NCBI RefSeq assembly: GCF_003459505.1
Contig: NZ_QRWD01000016.1
Coordinates: 1 to 13,965, forward strand
DNA length: 13,965 nucleotides
From: Collinsella sp. AF20-14LB
GTDB lineage: Bacteria; Actinomycetota; Coriobacteriia; Coriobacteriales; Coriobacteriaceae
Reading direction: 5' to 3'
Shown here: piece by piece, positions 1 through 12,083 of the stretch
Layout of the letters: each line of letters begins with the position of its first letter
Position numbering within the stretch: position 1 is the first letter of the stretch
The notes under the pieces: model-generated
What the model was told of the DNA's origin: nothing
Databases searched by the model: none
What the model saw: the letters and a program-made list of their open reading frames with translations, nothing else
Translations under genes and position numbers: made by a program

Positions 1-93
1 AGCGATCCCGCAGGCGAAGCCGAGGACCAGCGAGACACCAAGCGCCCTGCCGGCACTCGCGGGTAGCCGCGGCACCAAAAAACGCCTGCGCAC
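1..93 (-). CDS. possible 5' end of an unidentified gene with a hydrophobic N-terminus (partial, runs off the left edge)
   Basis: On the minus strand a frame stays open from a GTG at 93-91 to the window edge (31 codons). It reads Arg-Arg-Arg-Phe-Leu early and then the hydrophobic stretch LGVSLVLGFACGIA, like a signal peptide or membrane anchor. TTG (78-76) and GTG (75-73) are alternative starts. No Shine-Dalgarno is visible, and the first codons overlap the SRP RNA terminator, so expression would need read-through or an unseen promoter. The competing reading is a plus-strand frame of 21 codons (1-63, stop TAG 64-66), a hydrophilic tail that could be the 3' end of a gene lying to the left. I favour the minus strand only because the hydrophobic segment is protein-like and the neighbours on that side are also minus-strand. 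The function is unknown. Confidence 0.3.
   Translation of the reverse strand, partial: MRRRFLVPRLPASAGRALGVSLVLGFACGIA
77..93 (-). terminator. Rho-independent terminator of the SRP RNA
   Basis: On the minus strand the outer part of the SRP RNA closing helix (GTGCGCAGGCG, 93-83) is followed directly by T6 (82-77). The 3' arm can pair with GCGTCTAGCGCG upstream of the mature 5' end (199-188), allowing one bulge and a G-U pair. The RNA's own closing stem would therefore act as the terminator hairpin. Confidence 0.6.
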
Positions 94-186
94 TCGATGG
101 ATTCGGATGCCCGACAGAGGCTCCTTATGGCTGCTTCCTTCCGGACCTGACCAGATTCGGAACATGTCGTCATCCGAACCCATCGA
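94..186 (-). ncRNA. ffs: signal recognition particle RNA, small bacterial type (4.5S)
   Basis: Read on the minus strand, this contains the hallmark SRP loop sequence GGTCAGGTCCGGAAGGAAGC (150-131), which binds the Ffh M domain. It is enclosed by a long helix: TCGATGG near the 5' end (186-180) pairs with CCATCGA at the 3' end (100-94), followed by matching GGTTCGGATG and CATCCGAATC. The RNA is the scaffold of the signal recognition particle, which targets nascent membrane and secreted proteins to FtsY and the Sec translocon. The length of about 93 nt fits the small bacterial form lacking an Alu domain. The primary transcript probably runs from about 200 to about 77, because the closing helix continues outward (CGTCT..GCGC with GCGC..AGGCG) and ends in T6. 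The mature ends are estimates. Confidence 0.95.
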
Positions 187-280: not shown

Positions 281-3200
281 CTAGCGGCGCCTGCGGTACA
301 GGACCGCGCCGCCCGCTGCGGTCAGCGCGCCAATGCCGGCCATGGCGCCGAGCGCCTCAAGCGGCAGGCTGCGGTCGCCGGTGTCGGGCATACCGCCCTT
401 GGAGCCGTCACCGCTAGCGCCGCTGCCGGAGCCGTTATCTGAACCGCCGCCCGAGCCGCCGCCCGGCGTGCCGGGGTTCTCGGGGGTGCCGGGGGTGCCG
501 GGCTCCTCGGCGTAGCTGTTGGTGAAGACCGGCGGCAGGTTGGCGTCGCCCTCGTAGGAAACCTTCGCCGACAGATAGCCCGTCTTGGTGCCGTCTGCCG
601 CCTCGTCGCTCACCGTGACGACGATCTTGTGCACCGCCTTGTCGTAGGTCACGTGCGCCTGGCCGTCGTCGACCTCGCTCACCGTGAAGGTGTAGGTGCC
701 GGCCTGCTTGAAGGTCAGCGCATCGAACGTGACGCTGCCATCGGCGGCATTCTTGGCGGTCGACATGACCTTGCCGTCCCGGCTCTTGAGCTCAAAGCTA
801 AACTGGCCCGCCTTGAGCTCGGCGCCCTTGAGCACCTTGGCGGCGCCCAGTTTGAGGGTGACGGGTGCGGCCTCGTAGCCGTTGGTAAAGGTCACCGAGG
901 TGTCGCCCACGGCATTGCCCTCGGCATCCGCCAGCTCGTGCTTGACGGCGAGCGTGCCGTTACCGGCATCGGTGACCGTCGTGCGCACGCGGTACGTCGT
1001 CTTGTCGTACGTCACGCCGCCCGCCGTGCCGGCGACCTCGCGCAGCTCGTAGCTGTGCGTGCCGGGCGCGGTGTAGGGGACGGGGCTGAGCTCGACCGTT
1101 CCGTCGGCGGCGTTCTTGCCCGTCGCCACGACGCTCTCGCTGCCGTCGGCGGCAATCTCGACCAGCTGGAACTCGAACTCGCCCGCGGCCAGGCCACGGC
1201 CCTCGAGCTTCTTGCTCACCTTGATCTGGTCGGTGACGGAGCTCGGCGTCGGGCTCACGACGTAGGTGTTGGTGAACTCGAACGCGCCCTTGCCCTCGGG
1301 CGTGCCCTCTGCGGGCAGGACCTTCGCGACAAGCGTGCCCGCGGCGGTGTCCTCGACCACCCTGACCGTGAAGGTCCTGGTCGCCGTCGCGTCGTTGGCC
1401 ACGCCGTCGACCGAGCCGGACTCGCTCACCCGGTAGGCGAACGTCTTGGTGCGCAGGCCGTCGCCGTCGATCTCGACGCCATCGAGATCGCTCGGCTGCT
1501 TGAACGTGACGCGGCCCAGCACGACATTGCCGGCGGCATCGTTGGTCGCCTCGGTCACCGTCTTGCCGGAGGCGTCGACCGGTGCGGGCGCGCCGTCCAG
1601 CGGCTCAATCTTAAAGGTGTACCTGCCCGCGATGTCAGCCTGCGTGAGGCCGAGTCCGGCCTGGCCGAGCGCCAGCGTCTTGGTACCCGCGATGTCGACC
1701 GTCGCCTCGCCGGCGCTATAGCCGTTCACAAACGACAGCGTGCCGTCGGAGCCCTCGGGGTAGGTCACGGCCACATCCAGCCCGCCCTTGCCGTTATCGG
1801 TCACCTTGACCGTGATGCCGAAGCTTGACGTGGCCGCCGTCACGCCCGCAGGCAGCCGGTCCGTACCGTCCTCGGAAACGGTATAGGGAATGACCCAGGA
1901 GCCGTCGGCGGCCCTGGTGGCGGTGCCGTCTCCCACCATCCGCTCGAGCGCGTCAGTAGTATAGGCAATAGGCGAGAACGCAAGTCCCGCGGCCACGCCG
2001 TCGCCGGAGGCCCGGTTGGTCGCGGTCGCGACCACGTTGCCCCGGGCATCGCGGACGGAGAACGGGAACTCGCCCGCCTTCGCGGCGCGGCCCGTCAGCG
2101 TCTTGGTGGCATTAATTGCCACGTTGCCCTCGCCGCCGAGCGTTCCGGTGGCCTCGTAGGAGTTCTGGAACGCGACCGTCACGGGCGCGGGCGCCGCCAT
2201 GGCGTCATCTGCCGTGGAGACCTCGCTGCGGGCGACCTCGACACCGTCCCTGGCAACCGTGGTCGTGACCGTGAGCTTGCCCGTCGCGGCGTCGTAGGCG
2301 GGCGCGATGGTCACCGTGCGCGGCGCGGTGTCGTTGGTGTAGCCCTCGCCGCCGAGCTTGGTCTCGGTGGCGGTGAAGCGATAGACCTTGCCCGCGTCGG
2401 CGTCGGTGAACTTCACGTCGCTCTCCGCGGTCCCGCCGATGAGGTCGACCAGGCCGGCCGCACCGTCATCGGCCGCGGCCACGGCGTAGGCGTCCTTGCC
2501 GGTCTTGAGGCCGAGCTTGGCGGCCGTCTCGGCATCGGCGGTCACGGTGAAGGCGAACTGCCCCGCCTCCATGGCGTGGCCGGAGAGCGTCTTGGACAGG
2601 CGCACGCCCACGCGGGCCGAGTAGTCGAGCTTGGTCGTGTAGGTGTTGACGAAGTCGCCGCCGCTCGCCTGCGCAATCGCGGGCGTCGTGGCCGTAAGGT
2701 TGCCGGAGCCGTCGTCGGTCACGGTCACCGTCATCGTGGCGACGTGGTCGTCGTAGGCCACACCGGCGATGGCGGAGCCGTCATCGGGCTTGACCTCGCG
2801 CACCGTGTAGGTGAAGGTCTTGGCGCGCACGCGCTTGCCGCCGACCTCGGCGAACCCGGCATCTTTGATGTCATTGAGCGTGTAGCGGATGGAGCCGAAG
2901 TCAAAGGCGACCCTATCGCCCGCCTTGGTGCCGGCGGCGGCCGTCACACTGACGGTCTTGGAGCCGTCGGCAGAGCCCTCGGGCATGGGCGCGTCGCCCT
3001 CGCCCGCGAGCGCGAACTGGAAGCTGTCGCCCTCCGCCCAGTCGCGACCCTTGAGCGTCTTGGTGAAGAGTCCCGCGGTGGAGACGTCCCTGCCCCCGGT
3101 GGCCGTTCCGTACGTGTTGGTGAACGCGACGGTCGCGCCGTCCTCGGTCACGGCGCCTTCGGCCTTGGAGCCGTCAGCCCGGTTGACCGTGGTCGCGTAG

Positions 3201-6200
3201 CCCTCGGCGGCATCCTCGGTCACGGTATAGTGCGCGCCCACGGGTAGGCCGGAGATGATCTTCTCCCCGCCATCCTTAAGCGTGAAGTTCGCCTTGCCGT
3301 CCGCGAACGTCACGGCGTGCTCGCCCTTGCCGAAGGTGCCGGAGACGGGCTCGCCGTCCCCGTCGGTCAGCGCGACCGTAAAGCCGAACTCTCGCTGGCT
3401 GTCGCCGCCGACGACCGTCTTCTTGACGGTGAGGCTGCCCTCGCGGGACACGCTGTTGTGGGTCGTGTTGGTCTGGGATTCGTTCTCCCCCACCTTAACC
3501 GTGGCGGTGTTGGAGATGTCGTCGACCACGGCGGCTTCGGCGGAGACCTTCACGTCAAAGCTGAGCGTGCCCGTGGCGCCCGCAGCCTGCTCGCCGAGCG
3601 ACCAGGTAAGGGTGCGCGTCGCGGCGTCGTAGGCGGCACCGTCGGCAGAACCCTCAACATAGTTAACGCCCTTGGGCAGGACATCGGTCACCGTCACGTC
3701 AGCCGCCTGCGCGGCGCCCCTGTCGTCGACGCTGTTATTGGCCCAGCCGATGGTATAGGTGAGGGTATCGCCCACGCCCACCAGCCTGCCATCCACATTG
3801 ACCTTGGCACCCGAGGCGTCCGCCTTGGTGACGGTCTTGGTGTTGTCGTGCGGCGTGAAGGTGTTGGTGAAAGTCTTCTTGCCCCGCTCGTTGGAGATCT
3901 CGGCCTTAAGACCGGCACCAGTCTGAGTCACTGTGATGTCGAAGGTGTAGGCATGCGCATCGTCCTCAATCAGGACATCGCCGTTTGCTTTCTCGGTCAC
4001 GGTCGCGTGGTAGGTACCCAGATTGGTGAAGCTGAGCTCGCCAAAGGAAACCTTGCCGTCCTTGTCATTCTTCGCCTCGATTGGGTAGCCCTCGAGGACA
4101 TTGCCCGCGCCATCGGTGAGGGAGAGCTCGAAGGTGAATTCCCCCTCCTGGAGGCCGGGCTTGCGGCCGCCCGCGAGCACCTTGGTGAGCTCGGGGACGG
4201 ACGCCGTGGCGGGGGCGGGGTCGAAGGTGTTGGTGAAGGCGGCGGAGGCGACCTGATCGGCCGAGATGGAGCCATCGGCCCTGGATCCCTCGGCTCCGTT
4301 CACCGCGGCTTTGTAGCCATCGGCGGCACGTTCGGTCACCGTGTAGGCGGTTCCCGCGGGCAGCCCCGTGATCCTCGCCGTCTGGCCATCTTTGAGCTTG
4401 AGGGTCGCCTTGCCGTCCTCGAACGTCGCGTCACCGTAGGTGCCGGACACTTTGTTGCGGCCTGCGGCATCGGTGGCCTCAACCACAAACTTAAATATCT
4501 TGTCCGCGTCGACCGCCAGGCCCTCGCGCGCCACGACGGTCTTGGAGACGTCGAGCTCGCCCGTCTTCACAGTGTTGGTCACGGTGAAGCCGCGCTCGGC
4601 GTCGCCGGTGACCTTCGAGCTGTAGCCCTCGACGGGCACCTCGGCCACGGCGTAGTCGATCACGGAGCCGGACTTGGAGTACTTGGGCAGGCCCTCGAAG
4701 GAGTGCTTCCAGCTATTGGACTTCGACAGCTCGGCCGACTCGCCGGTGTCCTTCCCGTCGGCGAGCAGGCGCACGGTGGCCTTCTCGGCCGCCGGGCCGA
4801 CCCACTTCTTCTCGACGGGCACCGAGACCTTGGCCGTGGAGGTGTTGGTCACGGTGAAGCCGCGCTCGGCGTCGCCGGTGACCGCGGAGTCATAGCCCTC
4901 GACGGGGTCCTCGGACACGGTGTAGTGCGCGCCCGCGGGCAGGTTGGAGAAGACGCCCTTCCAGTCGTTGGACTCGCTCAGGGTGATCGAATCGATGACG
5001 GTATCGCCGTTCTTGAGATTTACTTTGACCTTATTAGGATGGGGAATCCTGGGGTTCTCCCAGACCTTTTTGATGGGAATGTCGATGTTCTCGGACTTGC
5101 CGATGATGACACCGCCGTTGGCGCCGATGCCGCCTCCCCGCTCGGCCGTATTGCCAGAGATCGTCAGCGACGTCTGACCGCGGCCGAGGTTATACACATC
5201 CTCGCTCATCACAGATTTAAGCGCGACGTTCGGCGTGGCGTCGGTAAAGGACAGGGGCTCGCCGTTGCCACCGTCGGGAGAGAATCGCGGGATTTCGGTG
5301 TTTGTTTCCGCATAAGTGCCTTCGGGGTTAAACAGCCCACCGTCTCTGTACCAGCTGACCTTTCCGCCGCCCGGAGCGCGGTTGGCCAAGGTCAGTTTGT
5401 ATTTGGCGTCTTTGAAGCCGGTGAAGACGAGGTCGTCTCCCGCCTCATCGGCCGAGTTCCTGGCGATCAGGCCACCGTTCTGGACGTAGACCTTGGCATC
5501 TCCGGTCGGGCAGAACCACATGCCGCCGCCCTGCTTTTTCGCATGGTTATCAACAACGAGAGCGTTTTCGATATGGAGCGTGCTATAGACGAGATACTCG
5601 TTGCCTTCGCTATATACGCCGCCACCCATATTCCGAGCAGTATTGTCCTTGATCTCGCCCGCACTGAGCTTGACGTCATCTGAATAGGTATAGATGCCTC
5701 CGCCGGCGGAAGCGGAGTTACCCGATACGGAGCCACCTTTCATAGTGAAAGCGGTATGGTCCCTACCACCCTGCTGCAGGCCGCGATCGACCACGCACAC
5801 TCCGCCGCCTTTGCCATCAGAATACGCAATATTGTCCTCGATCTTGCCGCCCTTGAGGGTAAACTCGGCATTCCCTTCGACGTGCACTGCGCCGGAGGGA
5901 GTTCGATTCCCAAGCTTATAGCCTCTGTTGCGCACAAGCTGACCACCGGTCATCTCAAAGGAGGCTCTCTGGTTACGAGCCTCGCTGTACATGACCACCG
6001 CGCCGCCCTGATAGCCGGCGTTATCCTCGATACTGCCGTTACTCATCTCAAGGTGGGCATCGCCCATCAGCATGATGCCGGTAGACGAAAGGTAATTACC
6101 ATCGCCGTCTGCGGAGAAAGACACATGATTCTTACGGATAACGCCGCCCTTCATGACAACATGAGCGCCGTCTTTCGCGTGGACAGCGCCGCAATACGCG

Positions 6201-8077
6201 TCCTTAAGTTCGCACTGCTCGATAACGCCGCCCGTCATGGTAAGCGAAGCCTTGTCTCCCGACACGTCGATGACACCCGTATTGACGGTGTTCGCAGCGC
6301 CGTCGCACACAACGGCCTCGTCAGAGAGCACAACCGCTCCCCTGCTAGAAATAATGGCGCCCTTGTTGTAGCGACCACTCAGGGACACTTTCCCCGACAG
6401 CTCGAGGGATGCCCCCTCGGCAACATTGACCAGTACGGAGAAGCCGCTTTTCTTTGCCAAGATGGTATAGGGCTCATCCGACGTGATCTTAATCATCTTC
6501 CCGGCAGGAATCGTGAGCGTGGAGCCAAGCTTCACGTGCTTTTTCAGGGTGATGACGGTTTCCTTGTCATAGGGGGCCTCGTCGACCAGATCCTGAAGGG
6601 TCTTGGTGCTGTCATCGCTCACGGTACCGCCGACGCCGTCATCGATGGACTCGCGCGTGTAGACGATATCGACGCCAAAGAACGGGAGGTTCTCCGAGCC
6701 TTTGATGTCGTCCATGCTGTTTTCGATTGTGATCTTTTTAACCGTGCTGCCTTCAAACATACCCGAGGGTATTTCGGTGAGGCCGCGCCCGATCGTCACA
6801 TCCTTCACGCCACCTACGCCCGAGAAGGCCGCCGTGCCAACGGAAGTCACGGAATCCGGAATGGAAAGCTGCTCCGGCAACGTGCCGTAATAGAAGGCGT
6901 AGTTGCCAATTGTCTCAAGTGTCCTGGGAAGCTGGACGGCGACGTTGCTCTGGATAAAGGCCCACTCACCGATACTCTTCAGGCTGTCGTAAAGCCCCAC
7001 GATCTTAACCGGTGTGTAGCAGAACGCATTGTCCGGAATGTTCTGAAGCGAGGACAGATCCACGGACGCCTGCAGATTTTTGCACTCGTAAAAAGCCCCC
7101 CAGCCCATCTTTGTCACCTTGCTTAGATTGGGCACGCTCACCAGGCTGGCGCACCCCTGGAAAGCAGAGGATCCGATGCTCTTCAATGTGCCTGGGAAAT
7201 CGATCCCAGTCAATCTCGAGCAAGTCCGAAACGCCCCATCCCCGATGGACTCGATTTCGCTCAGCGCGGTGACGGACGTGAGAGAGGTGCATCCGTCAAA
7301 CATGTGCGAGGGGATCTTGGTAACCGAAGCGGGCAACGACACGCTTGTCAGAGACGTGCAGTCTTCGAACACGCCCGTTATGGTGTCGGAGAAGGCGACA
7401 TCTTTTGGAAACTCGATGCCTGTGAGGGCCGTAGCCCCCTCGAAGGCGCCCGAGCCCGAAATCATTTTGAGGGTTGAGGGGAGATCGATCTCCGAAAGGT
7501 TGCTGCAGCCATAGACCATCATGTTGGCGCTAATCTCCTCGACGCCCTCATCGAAATAGAGCTTTTCGAGCGAGCCAGCGTTTTGCAGCGAGCAAGCGAA
7601 GTTCTTGATGGAGCCAGGGATATGGAGCTCCTTGACCTTTGCGAACCTCCGGAAATTCCCTCCGTACATTTTTTCGAGCGTGTCGGGAAGCGTCAGCTGC
7701 TCAACGTTCTTGGCCACGATACCAGACGAGAAATAAAGTTTGGTGACTTTGTAGGTCTGGCCACCATGCTCGATGGAGCTGGGCACACTCACCGCGGTCA
7801 CACTGTCGTCGGCAACAATACCTGTGATTTCCGCCGTGCCCTTATCCGTGGTCTCGCACGAATAGGTCACGCCGTCCTGGGTGATCTCAAACTCCTCCGC
7901 AGTATACGCAGTCCGCGATTCCGTGGCCGCATATGCGACACCGGCCGTCGCGCCAACGGATAAACATCCGAAGCCGAGAACCAGCGCAAGGCAGAGAGCA
8001 GCGACTCTCTGCCCCCCCGCCGAAAACTTTCCTCTCCAATTCCCTTCTCCCCCTCTGGTGTCGCCCTCTCTTCCCAA
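281..8077 (-). CDS. giant LPXTG-type cell-wall-anchored adhesin (BspA-like LRR, beta-helix, multi-domain isopeptide stalk)
   Basis: About 2,598 residues. A signal peptide (hydrophobic core about 25-46, cleavage likely after AYA at 48-50) precedes BspA/LRR_5 leucine-rich repeats (about 95-475). A glycine-rich beta-helix follows (about 530-990), with repeated MTGG, GGGIY and DNxA-type turns. Next come two Cna_B domains (about 998-1170), a DUF5979/Cna_B-like domain (1174-1290), an FctA/Spy0128-like domain (1293-1410), a DUF11 domain (1410-1540), a second DUF5979-like domain (1546-1660) and six more FctA-like domains (about 1668-2515). Most stalk domains end in FTNTY, FTNGY or similar, the asparagine strand of intramolecular isopeptide domains. 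A Pro/Gly/Ser linker leads to MPDTG (2563-2567), a hydrophobic segment and RRRR, so sortase anchoring is expected. Inference: a stiff surface fibre presenting the LRR/beta-helix head to host or microbial ligands. The assigned start is TTG at 8077 with no Shine-Dalgarno; a better TTG at 8039 is out of frame across a G7 tract (see findings). Ligand unknown. Confidence 0.9.
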   Translation of the reverse strand: MGREGDTRGGEGNWRGKFSAGGQRVAALCLALVLGFGCLSVGATAGVAYAATESRTAYTAEEFEITQDGVTYSCETTDKGTAEITGIVADDSVTAVSVPSSIEHGGQTYKVTKLYFSSGIVAKNVEQLTLPDTLEKMYGGNFRRFAKVKELHIPGSIKNFACSLQNAGSLEKLYFDEGVEEISANMMVYGCSNLSEIDLPSTLKMISGSGAFEGATALTGIEFPKDVAFSDTITGVFEDCTSLTSVSLPASVTKIPSHMFDGCTSLTSVTALSEIESIGDGAFRTCSRLTGIDFPGTLKSIGSSAFQGCASLVSVPNLSKVTKMGWGAFYECKNLQASVDLSSLQNIPDNAFCYTPVKIVGLYDSLKSIGEWAFIQSNVAVQLPRTLETIGNYAFYYGTLPEQLSIPDSVTSVGTAAFSGVGGVKDVTIGRGLTEIPSGMFEGSTVKKITIENSMDDIKGSENLPFFGVDIVYTRESIDDGVGGTVSDDSTKTLQDLVDEAPYDKETVITLKKHVKLGSTLTIPAGKMIKITSDEPYTILAKKSGFSVLVNVAEGASLELSGKVSLSGRYNKGAIISSRGAVVLSDEAVVCDGAANTVNTGVIDVSGDKASLTMTGGVIEQCELKDAYCGAVHAKDGAHVVMKGGVIRKNHVSFSADGDGNYLSSTGIMLMGDAHLEMSNGSIEDNAGYQGGAVVMYSEARNQRASFEMTGGQLVRNRGYKLGNRTPSGAVHVEGNAEFTLKGGKIEDNIAYSDGKGGGVCVVDRGLQQGGRDHTAFTMKGGSVSGNSASAGGGIYTYSDDVKLSAGEIKDNTARNMGGGVYSEGNEYLVYSTLHIENALVVDNHAKKQGGGMWFCPTGDAKVYVQNGGLIARNSADEAGDDLVFTGFKDAKYKLTLANRAPGGGKVSWYRDGGLFNPEGTYAETNTEIPRFSPDGGNGEPLSFTDATPNVALKSVMSEDVYNLGRGQTSLTISGNTAERGGGIGANGGVIIGKSENIDIPIKKVWENPRIPHPNKVKVNLKNGDTVIDSITLSESNDWKGVFSNLPAGAHYTVSEDPVEGYDSAVTGDAERGFTVTNTSTAKVSVPVEKKWVGPAAEKATVRLLADGKDTGESAELSKSNSWKHSFEGLPKYSKSGSVIDYAVAEVPVEGYSSKVTGDAERGFTVTNTVKTGELDVSKTVVAREGLAVDADKIFKFVVEATDAAGRNKVSGTYGDATFEDGKATLKLKDGQTARITGLPAGTAYTVTERAADGYKAAVNGAEGSRADGSISADQVASAAFTNTFDPAPATASVPELTKVLAGGRKPGLQEGEFTFELSLTDGAGNVLEGYPIEAKNDKDGKVSFGELSFTNLGTYHATVTEKANGDVLIEDDAHAYTFDITVTQTGAGLKAEISNERGKKTFTNTFTPHDNTKTVTKADASGAKVNVDGRLVGVGDTLTYTIGWANNSVDDRGAAQAADVTVTDVLPKGVNYVEGSADGAAYDAATRTLTWSLGEQAAGATGTLSFDVKVSAEAAVVDDISNTATVKVGENESQTNTTHNSVSREGSLTVKKTVVGGDSQREFGFTVALTDGDGEPVSGTFGKGEHAVTFADGKANFTLKDGGEKIISGLPVGAHYTVTEDAAEGYATTVNRADGSKAEGAVTEDGATVAFTNTYGTATGGRDVSTAGLFTKTLKGRDWAEGDSFQFALAGEGDAPMPEGSADGSKTVSVTAAAGTKAGDRVAFDFGSIRYTLNDIKDAGFAEVGGKRVRAKTFTYTVREVKPDDGSAIAGVAYDDHVATMTVTVTDDGSGNLTATTPAIAQASGGDFVNTYTTKLDYSARVGVRLSKTLSGHAMEAGQFAFTVTADAETAAKLGLKTGKDAYAVAAADDGAAGLVDLIGGTAESDVKFTDADAGKVYRFTATETKLGGEGYTNDTAPRTVTIAPAYDAATGKLTVTTTVARDGVEVARSEVSTADDAMAAPAPVTVAFQNSYEATGTLGGEGNVAINATKTLTGRAAKAGEFPFSVRDARGNVVATATNRASGDGVAAGLAFSPIAYTTDALERMVGDGTATRAADGSWVIPYTVSEDGTDRLPAGVTAATSSFGITVKVTDNGKGGLDVAVTYPEGSDGTLSFVNGYSAGEATVDIAGTKTLALGQAGLGLTQADIAGRYTFKIEPLDGAPAPVDASGKTVTEATNDAAGNVVLGRVTFKQPSDLDGVEIDGDGLRTKTFAYRVSESGSVDGVANDATATRTFTVRVVEDTAAGTLVAKVLPAEGTPEGKGAFEFTNTYVVSPTPSSVTDQIKVSKKLEGRGLAAGEFEFQLVEIAADGSESVVATGKNAADGTVELSPVPYTAPGTHSYELREVAGTAGGVTYDKTTYRVRTTVTDAGNGTLAVKHELADAEGNAVGDTSVTFTNGYEAAPVTLKLGAAKVLKGAELKAGQFSFELKSRDGKVMSTAKNAADGSVTFDALTFKQAGTYTFTVSEVDDGQAHVTYDKAVHKIVVTVSDEAADGTKTGYLSAKVSYEGDANLPPVFTNSYAEEPGTPGTPENPGTPGGGSGGGSDNGSGSGASGDGSKGGMPDTGDRSLPLEALGAMAGIGALTAAGGAVLYRRRR
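389..403 (-). other. MPDTG-type sortase signal region of the adhesin
   Basis: The adhesin ends with Gly-Gly-MPDTG (MPDTG encoded by 391-377 on the minus strand), then a hydrophobic stretch rich in Ala, Gly and Leu and four arginines before the stop at 281. This is the tripartite LPXTG sorting signal with Met in place of Leu. Class A or housekeeping-type sortases cleave between Thr and Gly and attach the protein to peptidoglycan. No sortase gene lies in the window, so the enzyme must be encoded elsewhere. Confidence 0.8.
4572..4613 (-). repeat. 42-bp direct repeat, copy 1 (in second Cna_B domain)
   Basis: This stretch is identical to 4842-4883. It encodes the end of a Cna_B domain (VTGDAERGFTVTNT on the minus strand). 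The copies are 270 bases (90 codons) apart, so recombination between them would delete or duplicate exactly one domain in frame. Confidence 0.85.
4842..4883 (-). repeat. 42-bp direct repeat, copy 2 (in first Cna_B domain)
   Basis: This is the second exact copy of the 4572-4613 repeat, at the corresponding position of the neighbouring Cna_B domain. Identity at the nucleotide level, not only the protein level, indicates recent domain duplication or gene conversion. Confidence 0.85.
8012..8018 (-). repeat. G7 homopolymer tract in the adhesin N-terminal coding region
   Basis: Seven consecutive G on the minus strand (C on the plus strand) lie between the candidate start codons and the signal-peptide hydrophobic core. 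No in-frame ATG, GTG or TTG lies between this tract and the hydrophobic core, so any translation of the adhesin must cross it. The position is typical of slipped-strand phase-variation switches. Confidence 0.7.
8037..8054 (-). promoter_or_regulatory. ribosome-binding site and alternative TTG start, out of frame with the adhesin in this allele
   Basis: On the minus strand AGGGGGAG (8054-8047) is followed after seven bases by TTG (8039-8037), an almost ideal Shine-Dalgarno spacing. The encoded start is Met-Glu-Arg-Lys-Val-Phe, a typical short basic N-region. In this sequence that frame stops after 50 codons at TGA (7889-7887). With six or nine G in the tract at 8012-8018 it would continue into the adhesin as MERKVFGGGQRVAALC. 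The annotated TTG at 8077 has no comparable ribosome-binding site. Confidence 0.6.
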
Positions 8078-8351
8078 GAGCGATCTATTGATTAGGACAG
8101 ATTAAAGACAACATTATGCCCAAAGAGGTCCATCATGGAGATAATCCACGTCTTCGCCCGAAATGGTAATAAATTGGCAGGATTAATCGGCGAACAACTG
8201 AACGAAGAGCAATCTACTAATGGCACACAAATGGCGGCGCCAACACCTGAAGTGCATAGTCTCCGATCCCCAGACAACACCATCGAGCGCCGCAGGGCGC
8301 AGGATTAAATTGTTCAGATTCACATGCCTTTACGGGTGTTTTCCTAGTCCC
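8078..8351. other. upstream region of the adhesin gene, no gene recognised
   Basis: About 270 bases, visibly richer in A and T than the flanking genes, between the adhesin start and the insertion sequence. It should hold the adhesin promoter. TTGTTC and TTTATT 18 bases apart on the minus strand (around 8170-8200) are a possible pair, and CATAAT near 8115 is another -10 candidate, but neither is convincing. A small hairpin (8287-8291 with 8296-8300) is present. The sequence TTAATCCTGC occurs twice on the minus strand (near 8180 and 8305). The minus-strand frame at 8092-8283 (63 codons) shows no coding character and no ribosome-binding site that I trust. Confidence 0.5.
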
Positions 8352-8359
8352 AAAAAGAC
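8352..8359 (+). repeat. target-site duplication, left copy (AAAAAGAC)
   Basis: AAAAAGAC abuts the left terminal repeat of the insertion sequence and recurs exactly at 9844-9851 beyond the right end. Eight-base duplications are usual for IS256-family elements. The match extends outward by two C, so a 9- or 10-base reading cannot be excluded. Confidence 0.85.
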
Positions 8360-8383
8360 GATCGCGTCGAAAATGTTGGTGTA
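8360..8383 (+). repeat. left terminal inverted repeat of the IS256-family element
   Basis: It begins GATCGCGTCGAAAATG and continues TTGGTGTA. Aligned without gaps to the reverse complement of 9820-9843, 19 of 24 bases agree. The inner GTGTAA recalls the IS256 family end. Confidence 0.85.
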
Positions 8384-8416
8384 AGAGTGGCACCCTAACG
8401 TCCCTTTAACGAAGAA

Positions 8417-8478
8417 CGGCCTTCGTCCTAGAATCTGAAATCACCACAACAACAGGTTCTAGGAAAGGACGAAGACCG
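8417..8478 (+). promoter_or_regulatory. inverted repeat in the transposase leader
   Basis: CGGCCTTCGTCCTAGAA (8417-8433) is complementary to 8457-8478 apart from a five-base bulge and one G-U pair. The right arm contains the purine-rich stretch AGGAAAGGACGAAG just before the transposase ATG (8481). A transcript entering from outside the element would fold and hide the ribosome-binding region. This fold-back protection against read-through expression is known from IS10 and IS50; its use here is inference. Confidence 0.5.
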
Positions 8479-8480
8479 CT

Positions 8481-9761
8481 ATGGAAATCTTATCAGACCC
8501 GACGCCGGACATGCTCGCCATGCCCCGTTTCGACGACGGCGCCATCGACATGCAGGAGCTGCTCAGGCGCCTCGCCGAGCAGGTCGTGAACGCCGTGATG
8601 GACGCCGAGGCCGACCAGCTGTGCGGGGGCGGGTCGAACAGCCGAAACGGCTACCGCGAGAGGTCGCTCGCCACCTGCGTCGGCACGCTGACGCTGCGCA
8701 TCCCGAAGCTCCGCACCGGCAGCTTCTTCCCGGACGACGTGATCGAGCGCTACCAGCGCGCGGACCGCGCCCTCGTTGCCGCCGTCGCCGAGATGTACGC
8801 CACCGGCACGAGCACCCGCAAGGTGCAGAGGGTGGCCGAGAAGATGGGCGTCTCCAGGCTCTCCAAGGACCAGGTGAGCGCCATCGCGTCGAGCCTGGAC
8901 GCCGACATCGAGGAGCTCTGCGCAAGGCCGCTCGACGGCTCGCCGGTGCCCTACGTCTGGCTCGACGCGACCTACGTCAAGTGCCGCCGCGAGGGGCGCG
9001 TTGCCTCCACCGCCGTGGTCACCGCCATCGGCTGCGACGCGGGCGGCTGGAGGCGCGTCCTGGGCGTCGACGTGGTGGACACCGAGTCATACGACTCGTG
9101 GCTCGCCTTCCTGCGGACCATCCGCTCGCGCGGGGCGGCGGGCGTGCGGCTCATCGTCTCGGACGCCCACCCGGGCCTCGTCCGCGCGCTCGGCGAGGTC
9201 TTCCAGGGCGCCGCGTGGCAGCGCTGCGCCGTCCACCTCATGCGCGACTGCATGCGCGAGGCGAGCTCCTGGCAGCTCAGGCGCCGCGTGGGCAGGATCG
9301 TCTCGCAGGTGTTCCGCGGGCGCGACGCCGCCACCGTGACGGCCATGTACCACGCGGCGTGCGACATGCTGGCGGGGTGCTGCCCGAGGGCGGCGGCTGT
9401 GCTGGAGGAGGCCGAGCCCGACGCGCTGGCCTACCTCGACTTCCCGCCGACCCACTGGAAGCGCCTGCGCACCAACAACGTGCAGGAGAGGACCAACCGA
9501 GAGATAAAGCGCAGGTCGCGCGTCGTGCAGGTGTTCCCGTCAACGGGCTCGCTGGTGCGGCTCGCGGGCGCGGTCATGTGCGAGCAGGACGAAATATGGC
9601 AGGAGTCCAGGTACTTCTCGGAGGAGAGGATGAACGAGCTCTACGACGAGGGCCGCACGCGCGGGATCGACGGCCCCGTCGACTGGGCGCGGCTTGAGGC
9701 GGAGGCCAGGAAGATGATCGAATCGGGCCTCGAGCTTGCGGACAGGGTCGAGGCGGCATAG
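8481..9761 (+). CDS. IS256-family (Mutator-type) transposase
   Basis: A 426-residue DDE transposase, the usual size for the family. It catalyses cutting and strand transfer of the surrounding element. The likely catalytic triad is visible: Asp162 in VWLDATYVK, Asp228 in LIVSDAHPG and Glu336 in TNNVQERTNRE. The family's Cys/His motif is present as RCAVHLMRD (248-256). The N-terminal region (about 20-130) includes NGYRERS and LRIPKLRTGSFFP, conserved in Transposase_mut proteins. The reading frame is uninterrupted, both ends are normal and all key residues are present, so the enzyme should be active. The start is ATG, with AAAGGA about 12 bases upstream inside a leader hairpin, so translation is probably weak. 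GC content is as high as that of the host genes, suggesting exchange among related high-GC bacteria. Confidence 0.95.
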   Translation: MEILSDPTPDMLAMPRFDDGAIDMQELLRRLAEQVVNAVMDAEADQLCGGGSNSRNGYRERSLATCVGTLTLRIPKLRTGSFFPDDVIERYQRADRALVAAVAEMYATGTSTRKVQRVAEKMGVSRLSKDQVSAIASSLDADIEELCARPLDGSPVPYVWLDATYVKCRREGRVASTAVVTAIGCDAGGWRRVLGVDVVDTESYDSWLAFLRTIRSRGAAGVRLIVSDAHPGLVRALGEVFQGAAWQRCAVHLMRDCMREASSWQLRRRVGRIVSQVFRGRDAATVTAMYHAACDMLAGCCPRAAAVLEEAEPDALAYLDFPPTHWKRLRTNNVQERTNREIKRRSRVVQVFPSTGSLVRLAGAVMCEQDEIWQESRYFSEERMNELYDEGRTRGIDGPVDWARLEAEARKMIESGLELADRVEAA

Positions 9762-9819
9762 GATATCAACCGTGTTCCAGGTTCCAGGACGCCGGGCCGA
9801 CTCGCTTCGGATCGGACGC

Positions 9820-9843
9820 TACACCAACTTTCTCGACACTACC
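9820..9843 (-). repeat. right terminal inverted repeat of the IS256-family element
   Basis: Read on the minus strand it starts GGTAGTGTCGAGAAAG and continues TTGGTGTA, matching the left end at 19 of 24 positions. It begins 58 bases after the transposase stop codon. Confidence 0.85.
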
Positions 9844-9851
9844 AAAAAGAC
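9844..9851 (+). repeat. target-site duplication, right copy (AAAAAGAC)
   Basis: An exact copy of 8352-8359. Removing the element and one copy restores AAAAAGACCGGTCT, so the insertion fell beside the 10-base palindrome AGACCGGTCT (9849-9858). Confidence 0.85.
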
Positions 9852-11993: not shown

Positions 11994-12083
11994 GGAGAGA
12001 TGGCAGAGCGGTTGAATGCGGCGGTCTTGAAAACCGTTGAGCGCGAGAGCGTTCCGGGGGTTCGAATCCCCCTCTCTCCGCCA
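11994..12083 (+). tRNA. tRNA-Ser (anticodon UGA)
   Basis: The acceptor GGAGAGA (11994-12000) pairs with TCTCTCC (12073-12079), followed by G and an encoded CCA (12081-12083). The anticodon stem CGGT/ACCG holds the loop CTTGAAA, giving anticodon TGA (12028-12030), which reads UCA and related serine codons. A long variable arm (about 12040-12056), typical of class II serine tRNAs, and a T-loop GGTTCGAATCC are present. Total length is 90 bases. A -10-like TATCAT lies at 11978-11983, but its -35 box is unclear. Only T4 follows the CCA, so the 3' end may be made by processing. Confidence 0.97.

What the first reader, a model, noticed from the sequence alone, without database searches (positions are those of the whole stretch)
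7887..8077. Giant adhesin appears to be a phase-variable gene caught in the OFF frame
Seen: the adhesin frame has only one possible start, TTG at 8077, with no Shine-Dalgarno. No in-frame start exists between the G7 tract (8012-8018) and the signal-peptide core. A second TTG (8039-8037) has AGGGGGAG seven bases upstream but is out of frame and stops after 50 codons (TGA 7889-7887). With six or nine G it would read MERKVFGGGQRVAALC straight into the adhesin, giving about 2,585 residues with a short basic N-region typical of signal peptides. Known: slippage in short G/C tracts near starts switches surface proteins in many host-associated bacteria. Inference: this allele is OFF or weakly expressed. 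A one-base homopolymer sequencing error would give the same picture, and would then mean the gene is constitutively on from 8039.
Basis: partly seen in the sequence, partly recalled or inferred. Interest (0 to 1): 0.75.

Follow-up and report, generated by a model that had tools for sequence, protein, structure and literature searches.

The report
Hypermutable G-tract switch on Collinsella adhesin
Near the start of a 2,598-residue surface-protein gene in a bacterium that is likely a gut Collinsella sits a run of seven G's; relatives carry otherwise identical copies of the protein with inferred runs of 7, 9 or 10 G's, so the run likely acts as a slipping switch that turns the protein on and off in individual cells.

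Summary
The adhesin frame (281-8077, minus strand) has one ordinary start, TTG 8077, without a Shine-Dalgarno. TTG 8039 has a very strong one, but at G7 it opens a different, 50-codon frame. Of 171 close relatives from three protein searches (two are the window's own entries), 117 show an inferable tract length: 6 (2), 7 (32), 9 (49), 10 (33), 12 (1). Eleven pairs of predicted proteins are identical for 2,477-2,665 residues beyond the tract yet differ in tract length; eight are 9/10 pairs. On a tree of the protein bodies tract length changes 51 times, close to shuffled labels (54.7, sd 3.2). The frame label alone changes 36 times, against at most 22 for any of 148 well-mixed amino-acid columns. 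Lengths are inferred from protein starts, not DNA; expression was not measured. The closest known system, Bifidobacterium breve's G-tract pilus switch, has nearly the same layout. Long G-tracts also lie near the 5' ends of some envelope genes in related genomes. It is a new member of a known kind; the papers searched hold no report for Collinsella.

The parts
281..8077 (-). Giant surface protein frame as it stands (2,598 aa from TTG 8077): signal peptide, BspA-type LRR, Cna_B, DUF11, DUF7601 and seven FctA-type isopeptide stretches, MPDTG-type wall-sorting tail
   Evidence: signal peptide and sorting tail read by eye
8012..8018 (-). G7 tract, the switch element
   Evidence: inferred length varies 6-12 in relatives
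8037..8039 (-). TTG start with strong Shine-Dalgarno; in this allele it opens a 50-codon frame
8047..8054 (-). AGGGGGAG, Shine-Dalgarno-like, seven bases before TTG 8039
   Evidence: duplex -12.0 kcal/mol
7887..8039 (-). 50-codon short frame read from TTG 8039 in this allele, ending at TGA 7889-7887
8075..8077 (-). TTG, sole ordinary start of the adhesin frame here; no Shine-Dalgarno (-0.5 kcal/mol)
7928..8002 (-). Signal-peptide core and likely cleavage region (AALCLALVLGFGCLSVGATAGVAYA)
   Evidence: by eye
281..391 (-). MPDTG motif, hydrophobic stretch and basic tail: predicted sortase sorting signal
   Evidence: by eye

Best explanation
The G-run at 8012-8018 likely works as a slipped-strand (replication-slippage) phase switch for the giant surface protein, because relatives' proteins that are identical beyond the run carry different inferred run lengths, which place the same protein body in different frames relative to two upstream start codons. 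Shown: the two TTG starts lie in different frames here; only TTG 8039 has a strong Shine-Dalgarno; relatives' predicted proteins begin at one start or the other according to inferred tract length; tract length has little or no phylogenetic signal. Inferred: the 8039 frame is the ON state, and the window's frame (fed only by TTG 8077) is OFF or weak. A third class of lengths, which would join neither start, is expected, but gene callers would not show it. The switch would make a clonal population a mixture of cells with and without this predicted wall-anchored adhesin.
For: Relatives: inferred lengths 6 (2), 7 (32), 9 (49), 10 (33), 12 (1) of 171 collected; 54 not inferable. Eleven identical-body pairs differ in tract length (8x 9/10, 2x 7/10, 1x 7/9). 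Of 70 distinct first-1000-residue bodies, 13 occur with more than one length, 4 with 7, 9 and 10. In three of the eight 9/10 pairs the longest listed contigs differ by one base: 11732/11733 and 14568/14569, 24011/24012. On a FastTree of 126 bodies, tract length (117 rows) needs 51 changes (200 shuffles: mean 54.7, sd 3.2, minimum 46) and the frame label (121 rows) 36 (mean 39.0, sd 3.1, minimum 31); a control residue needs 10 (mean 28.2, sd 1.7) and 148 amino-acid columns with minor count >=30 need a median of 11, maximum 22. Shine-Dalgarno contrast -12.0 vs -0.5 kcal/mol. Nearly the same layout is experimentally shown for B. breve bbr_0113 and bbr_1889 (PMC9187656). G10 tracts also lie near the 5' end of the two best homologues in the family (L012; L013/L038); in L012 the tract lies in a TTGACA-18-TATGCT promoter-like spacer.
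Against: No DNA of the relatives could be read; lengths rest on predicted proteins and glycine counts, and gene callers choose starts. The two visible frames are about equally common (A 68, B 53 of 126 rows), so population data do not say which is ON. Observed changes are slightly below the shuffle means (51 vs 54.7, 36 vs 39.0), so a weak phylogenetic signal is possible. Seven G is near the short end for frequent slippage (recalled). Some pairs may be re-assemblies of one sample: one 9/10 pair lists the same longest contig length (141556) for both alleles. No transcript, protein or switching data exist here. Five relatives begin MGQRV, which this model does not explain, and 45 rows start beyond the tract.
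Confidence: 0.82

Rival explanations
1. The tract differences are sequencing or assembly errors, and the gene is constitutively on from one start.
For: Homopolymers are error-prone (recalled); many relatives come from assemblies without an organism name; in three 9/10 pairs the longest listed contigs differ by one base, and in one both are 141556, so some pairs could be re-assemblies of one sample.
Confidence: 0.08
2. The polarity is reversed: TTG 8077 is the working start, so the window's frame is ON and the 8039 frame OFF.
For: The N-terminus MGREGDTRGGEGNWRGKF shows few changes among the 68 rows in that frame; the frame is as common as the other.
Against: No Shine-Dalgarno at 8077 against -12.0 kcal/mol at 8039; the resulting N-region is long and carries three acidic residues, while the 8039 N-region is short and basic (by eye). 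Nucleotide constraint on the ribosome site would conserve the same stretch.
Confidence: 0.1
3. The protein is made at every tract length by transcriptional slippage or ribosomal frameshifting at the G-run, so the tract sets a level and not an ON/OFF state.
For: Nucleotide runs can slip in transcription and translation (recalled; a recoding review is cited in PMC9187656, seen only as a reference).
Against: In B. breve, transcription drops after the out-of-frame stop, and pilus-like structures were seen in derivatives with the frames placed in line, not in the parent (PMC9187656 section 15). Not tested in this organism.
Confidence: 0.08
4. The window's copy is a decaying gene with its 5' end disturbed by the IS256 element upstream.
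For: An IS256 element with a 10-bp target repeat lies at 8360-9841, about 280 bp upstream of TTG 8077.
Against: The 7.8-kb frame is intact, and the 171 relatives include 31 others with the same inferred 7-G form; the IS lies outside the gene.
Confidence: 0.04

Closest known systems
Bifidobacterium breve UCC2003 G-tract switch of sortase-dependent pili (bbr_0113, bbr_1889; PMC9187656)
   Same: Short upstream frame with good translation signals, then a G-tract, then a giant anchored surface-protein frame (2,674 aa in bbr_1889b) in another frame; the annotated downstream start lacks a Shine-Dalgarno; tract-length plasticity in the population (abstract, sections 15 and 21 and passages read).
   Different: Different class of bacteria. 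In B. breve the secretion signal is in the upstream frame; here the signal-peptide core lies after the tract. Here a second start codon serves another frame, and no sortase or pilin cluster is visible inside the window. B. breve has experimental proof; this locus does not.
Poly-G promoter switches such as Neisseria meningitidis PorA (PMC3639595, start of abstract in a search listing only)
   Same: A poly-G run whose length sets expression of a surface protein; L012, a homologue from the same family, has G10 in a promoter-like spacer.
   Different: In the window the tract is in the leader before the signal-peptide core, not in a promoter.
Haemophilus influenzae lic1-type translational switch with start codons in several frames (recalled, no call)
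   Same: Alternative start codons in different frames upstream of the repeat could give graded expression.
   Different: Tetranucleotide repeat and lipopolysaccharide genes there (recalled); mononucleotide tract and a wall-anchored protein here.

Membership tests
Simple-sequence-repeat contingency locus (slipped-strand phase variation) | Mononucleotide tract at the 5' end of a surface gene | tested here: met
   G7 at 8012-8018
Simple-sequence-repeat contingency locus (slipped-strand phase variation) | Tract length polymorphic among close relatives with an otherwise conserved gene | tested here: met
   Inferred from protein starts, not DNA: 6, 7, 9, 10, 12; 11 identical-body pairs
Simple-sequence-repeat contingency locus (slipped-strand phase variation) | Tract evolves faster than the rest of the gene | tested here: met
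   36 frame changes vs at most 22 for 148 amino-acid columns; close to shuffled labels
Simple-sequence-repeat contingency locus (slipped-strand phase variation) | Length change alters the frame linking start and coding region | tested here: met
   Two N-terminal classes follow inferred length
Simple-sequence-repeat contingency locus (slipped-strand phase variation) | Reversible switching with measured ON/OFF expression | not testable with these tools
   No reads, transcripts or proteomes
Bifidobacterium-type G-tract pilus switch | Short well-initiated frame plus G-tract plus giant sortase-anchored frame | tested here: met
   MPDTG tail by eye
Bifidobacterium-type G-tract pilus switch | Secretion signal encoded in the upstream short frame | tested here: not met
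   The signal core lies after the tract, in the giant frame (by eye)
Bifidobacterium-type G-tract pilus switch | Gene is first in a cluster with pilins and a dedicated sortase | tested here: inconclusive
   No sortase among the 7 window proteins scanned; an SRP RNA follows the gene at 91-186 and the window ends
Bifidobacterium-type G-tract pilus switch | Sequence homology to bbr_0113/bbr_1889 | not tested
   Not compared
Isopeptide-domain (Cna_B/FctA) LPXTG-type surface protein | Cna_B and FctA/Spy0128-like domains above curated cut-off | tested here: met
   FctA 358.6 bits, Cna_B 134 bits; TIGR03786 195.4 bits

The most novel reading that the evidence does not exclude
Collinsella and its kin run a genus-wide contingency system: poly-G tracts in promoter spacers and leaders independently switch adhesins, Flp-like pilins, capsule-type sugar transferases and a DNA adenine methyltransferase. 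The adhesin here is a three-state version (strong start, weak start, no start) that gives gut populations standing surface diversity.
Probability: 0.4. Interest if true: 0.78.

Novelty: new member of a known kind. Interest (0 to 1): 0.62.

Why it matters
Collinsella is a common gut actinobacterium (recalled). If this giant surface protein switches by slippage, individual cells in one gut differ in adhesion and antigen display, a single reference genome cannot say whether a strain makes the protein, and metagenome reads over one short tract would report the state directly. It would extend the bifidobacterial pilus switch to another class of gut actinobacteria. Public annotation may also start these proteins at an internal codon, which hides the signal peptide: the entry named Collinsella sp. 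TM06-3 (P0147) and the 9-G form P0066 have the same listed contig length and body.

Tried and rejected
Tried with little or no result: the window's own genome is not held. No sigma-70-type promoter was found on the minus strand of 7950-8480. L038 and L061 tracts gave no promoter match. The 57-aa frame at 8135-8308 (+) matched no NCBIfam family. PMC3711429 (passages only) does not mention Collinsella.

Considered and rejected: using the 120-row listing as a frequency estimate, since its ranking favours long N-termini; searches use regions away from the N-terminus. Treating internal starts (MTYSC, MAEIT) as the invisible third frame: five MTYSC rows share an exact body with a visible-frame row, one of them the window's own, so they can be alternative gene calls. 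Dropped before counting: three unrelated LRR proteins (P0002, P0003, P0062); the window's own two entries (P0004, P0123) are kept in the 171, and without them the counts are 169 with 31 at 7-G. Each listing shows only the best 120 of 7,474, 2,487 and 7,686 hits.
Full report
WHAT IS THERE. The minus-strand frame 8077-281 encodes a 2,598-residue surface protein. Pfam finds BspA-type LRRs, Cna_B, DUF11, DUF7601 and seven FctA-type isopeptide stretches; NCBIfam agrees (TIGR03786). The tail MPDTG, a hydrophobic stretch and RRRR looks like a sortase sorting signal (by eye). Relatives with 100% identity over the query region are named Collinsella sp. AM41-2BH, TM06-3 and AF23-6, so the organism is likely a Collinsella; the window's own assembly is not held.

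THE START. The adhesin frame's only ordinary start before the signal core is TTG 8077. TTG 8039 lies in another frame and ends after 50 codons at 7889-7887. The 19 nt upstream of TTG 8039 (positions -22 to -4) pair with the 16S tail (recalled letters) at -12.0 kcal/mol, reached by 0.5% of 1,201 NTG triplets in the window; TTG 8077 gives -0.5, reached by 93%.

POPULATION EVIDENCE. Three protein searches (best 120 listed of 7,474, 2,487 and 7,686) gave 171 close relatives after three unrelated LRR proteins were dropped; two of the 171 are the window's own. The glycines between the start and the signal core, with the frame of the N-terminus, give the tract length; 7 in 32 rows, 10 in 33 (both beginning MGREGD), 9 in 49, 6 in 2, 12 in 1 (beginning MERKVF or MERNVF). 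The rest are 5 beginning MGQRV, 4 with irregular tracts and 45 with starts beyond the tract. The rankings do not depend on the N-terminus. The 120 rows: 9 in 43, 10 in 18, 7 in 17, 6 in 1, 12 in 1, MGQRV in 4, internal starts in 36. The 120 rows: 9 in 42, 7 in 19, 10 in 17, 6 in 1, 12 in 1, MGQRV in 5, and 35 others, the three unrelated proteins included. The three listings overlap. Lengths 8 and 11 would leave the body joined to neither start and so would be invisible here; nothing can be said on their frequency.

SAME GENE, DIFFERENT TRACT. Eleven pairs of relatives are identical for 2,477-2,665 residues beyond the tract but differ in inferred length: eight 9/10, two 7/10, one 7/9. Of 70 distinct first-1000-residue bodies, 13 occur with more than one length and 4 with 7, 9 and 10. 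In three of the eight 9/10 pairs the longest listed contigs differ by exactly one base, in one by two bases, and in one (P0154/P0157) they have the same length; the other three list unrelated lengths.

RATE TEST. On a FastTree tree of 126 protein bodies (111 different) with the tract left out, tract length (117 rows) needs 51 changes, close to 200 shuffles (mean 54.7, sd 3.2, minimum 46). The frame label (121 rows) needs 36 (shuffles 39.0, sd 3.1, minimum 31). A control polymorphic residue needs 10 (shuffles 28.2, sd 1.7). The 148 amino-acid columns with a minor count of at least 30 need a median of 11 and at most 22. The tree was built from those columns, which favours them; some rows may be re-assemblies of one sample; and the tract counts are slightly below the shuffle means. 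Even so, the tract behaves as a hypermutable site in a gene that otherwise keeps its history.

HOW IT LIKELY WORKS. Slippage of DNA polymerase changes the G-run. In one class of lengths the strong start at 8039 reads into the adhesin with a short basic N-region (inferred ON). In the window's class the strong start yields a 50-codon peptide, and only the start without a Shine-Dalgarno at 8077 is in frame (inferred OFF or weak). A third class joins neither. Shown: the frames, the Shine-Dalgarno contrast, the inferred length classes and their near lack of phylogenetic signal. Inferred: slippage as the cause, the ON/OFF polarity and any effect on adhesion.

NEIGHBOURS AND KIN. Of 65 family genomes searched, 26 have an LRR match at E <= 0.001. 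The two best (L012 from G049, 42%; L013/L038 from G021, 41-49%) both carry G10 near the 5' end of the frame, before the likely start by eye. Among the 41 loci then held, five (four distinct tracts: L012, L013/L038, L020, L041) had a G or C run of at least 8 near the 5' end of a long frame. In L012 the run sits in a TTGACA-18-TATGCT promoter-like spacer; no promoter match was found for L038. Runs of nine or more G occur in 43 of 43 genus genomes. In one-per-genome loci, 17 of 27 centred tracts (of 30 loci; 3 not centred) lie near the 5' end of a frame of at least 200 aa on the G strand, against 7.9 (sd 2.2) expected from random positions (1 of 500 draws as high); the C strand gives 9. In G001 it is 11 of 13 centred tracts (of 16 found) against 3.4 (sd 1.5), 0 of 500 draws as high; the C strand gives 3. 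Ten G001 frames were scanned: SpaA fold, DUF6273 with pilin-like signals, a sugar transferase, a methyltransferase and a LuxR-type regulator were among them; two long frames matched no family.

WHAT IS KNOWN. In B. breve UCC2003, two sortase-pilus genes are split by a G-tract into a short, well-initiated frame and a giant frame; population tract-length plasticity and pilus production were shown (PMC9187656; abstract, sections 15 and 21 and passages read). That is the same logic. The differences here are the second start in another frame, the signal core lying after the tract, and a different class of bacteria. For Collinsella, the searches 'Collinsella' with 'phase variation' (7 papers, none by title on this), 'slipped-strand mispairing' (0), 'homopolymeric tract' (0), 'contingency loci' (0) and 'homopolymer' plus 'frameshift' (2, both off topic by title) found no report in the open-access library. 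Broader searches were seen only as their first 20, 20 and 10 listed papers. Subscription papers were not searched.

LIMITS. No relative's DNA was read; lengths are deduced from predicted proteins. No reads, transcripts or proteomes were available. Five MGQRV rows are unexplained.

VERDICT. It is a new member of a known kind, more interesting for hinting at a genus-wide set of such switches.

Noticed in passing
window 8360-9841 (+), repeats at 8350-8359 and 9842-9851: An IS256-family element with a 10-bp target-site repeat lies about 280 bp upstream of the adhesin start; a 92%-identical end begins two contigs of G001 (L001, L002). Whether it changes adhesin transcription is unknown.
   Followed up: partly
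window 91-186 (-) and 11994-12080 (+): A bacterial small SRP RNA lies directly downstream of the adhesin, and a tRNA lies beside the glycerate-kinase/deaminase frame.
   Followed up: no
P0109, P0110, P0111, P0113, P0117: Five relatives at several places on the tree begin MGQRV; this would need an NTG codon at or inside the tract, perhaps an interrupted tract.
   Followed up: no
adhesin residues about 1040-1140 (relatives): Protein length varies by a 90-residue insertion in this region, just before or within the Cna_B stretch, in 5 of 5 pairs aligned.
   Followed up: partly
L072, L075, L079, L080 (G001): Four similar leaders (ATG, short stretch, G9-10) precede a class III-type pilin signal (GQSIIEYVLI, read by eye). 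Three were scanned (L072, L075, L079): all have DUF6273, two with Flp/Fap pilin matches below cut-off.
   Followed up: partly
L080 around 2100 (G001): G11 lies at the start of an open frame matching a D12-class adenine methyltransferase only from model position 85, suggesting a tract inside the gene and a possible phase-variable methylation system.
   Followed up: partly
L082 (G001), L042, L060: A G10 tract precedes a Bac_transf sugar transferase frame in G001; G9 and G10 tracts with similar leaders, by eye, occur in two other genomes, whose frames were not scanned.
   Followed up: partly
L086 (G001): G12 lies near the start of a frame with a LuxR-type (GerE) DNA-binding end.
   Followed up: no
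G007, G029, G027 and G008: Three genus genomes hold hundreds of nine-G matches (566, 989 and 270, overlapping matches counted, both strands) and G008 holds 90, while the other 39 hold 2-34; a biological or assembly cause is not known.
   Followed up: no
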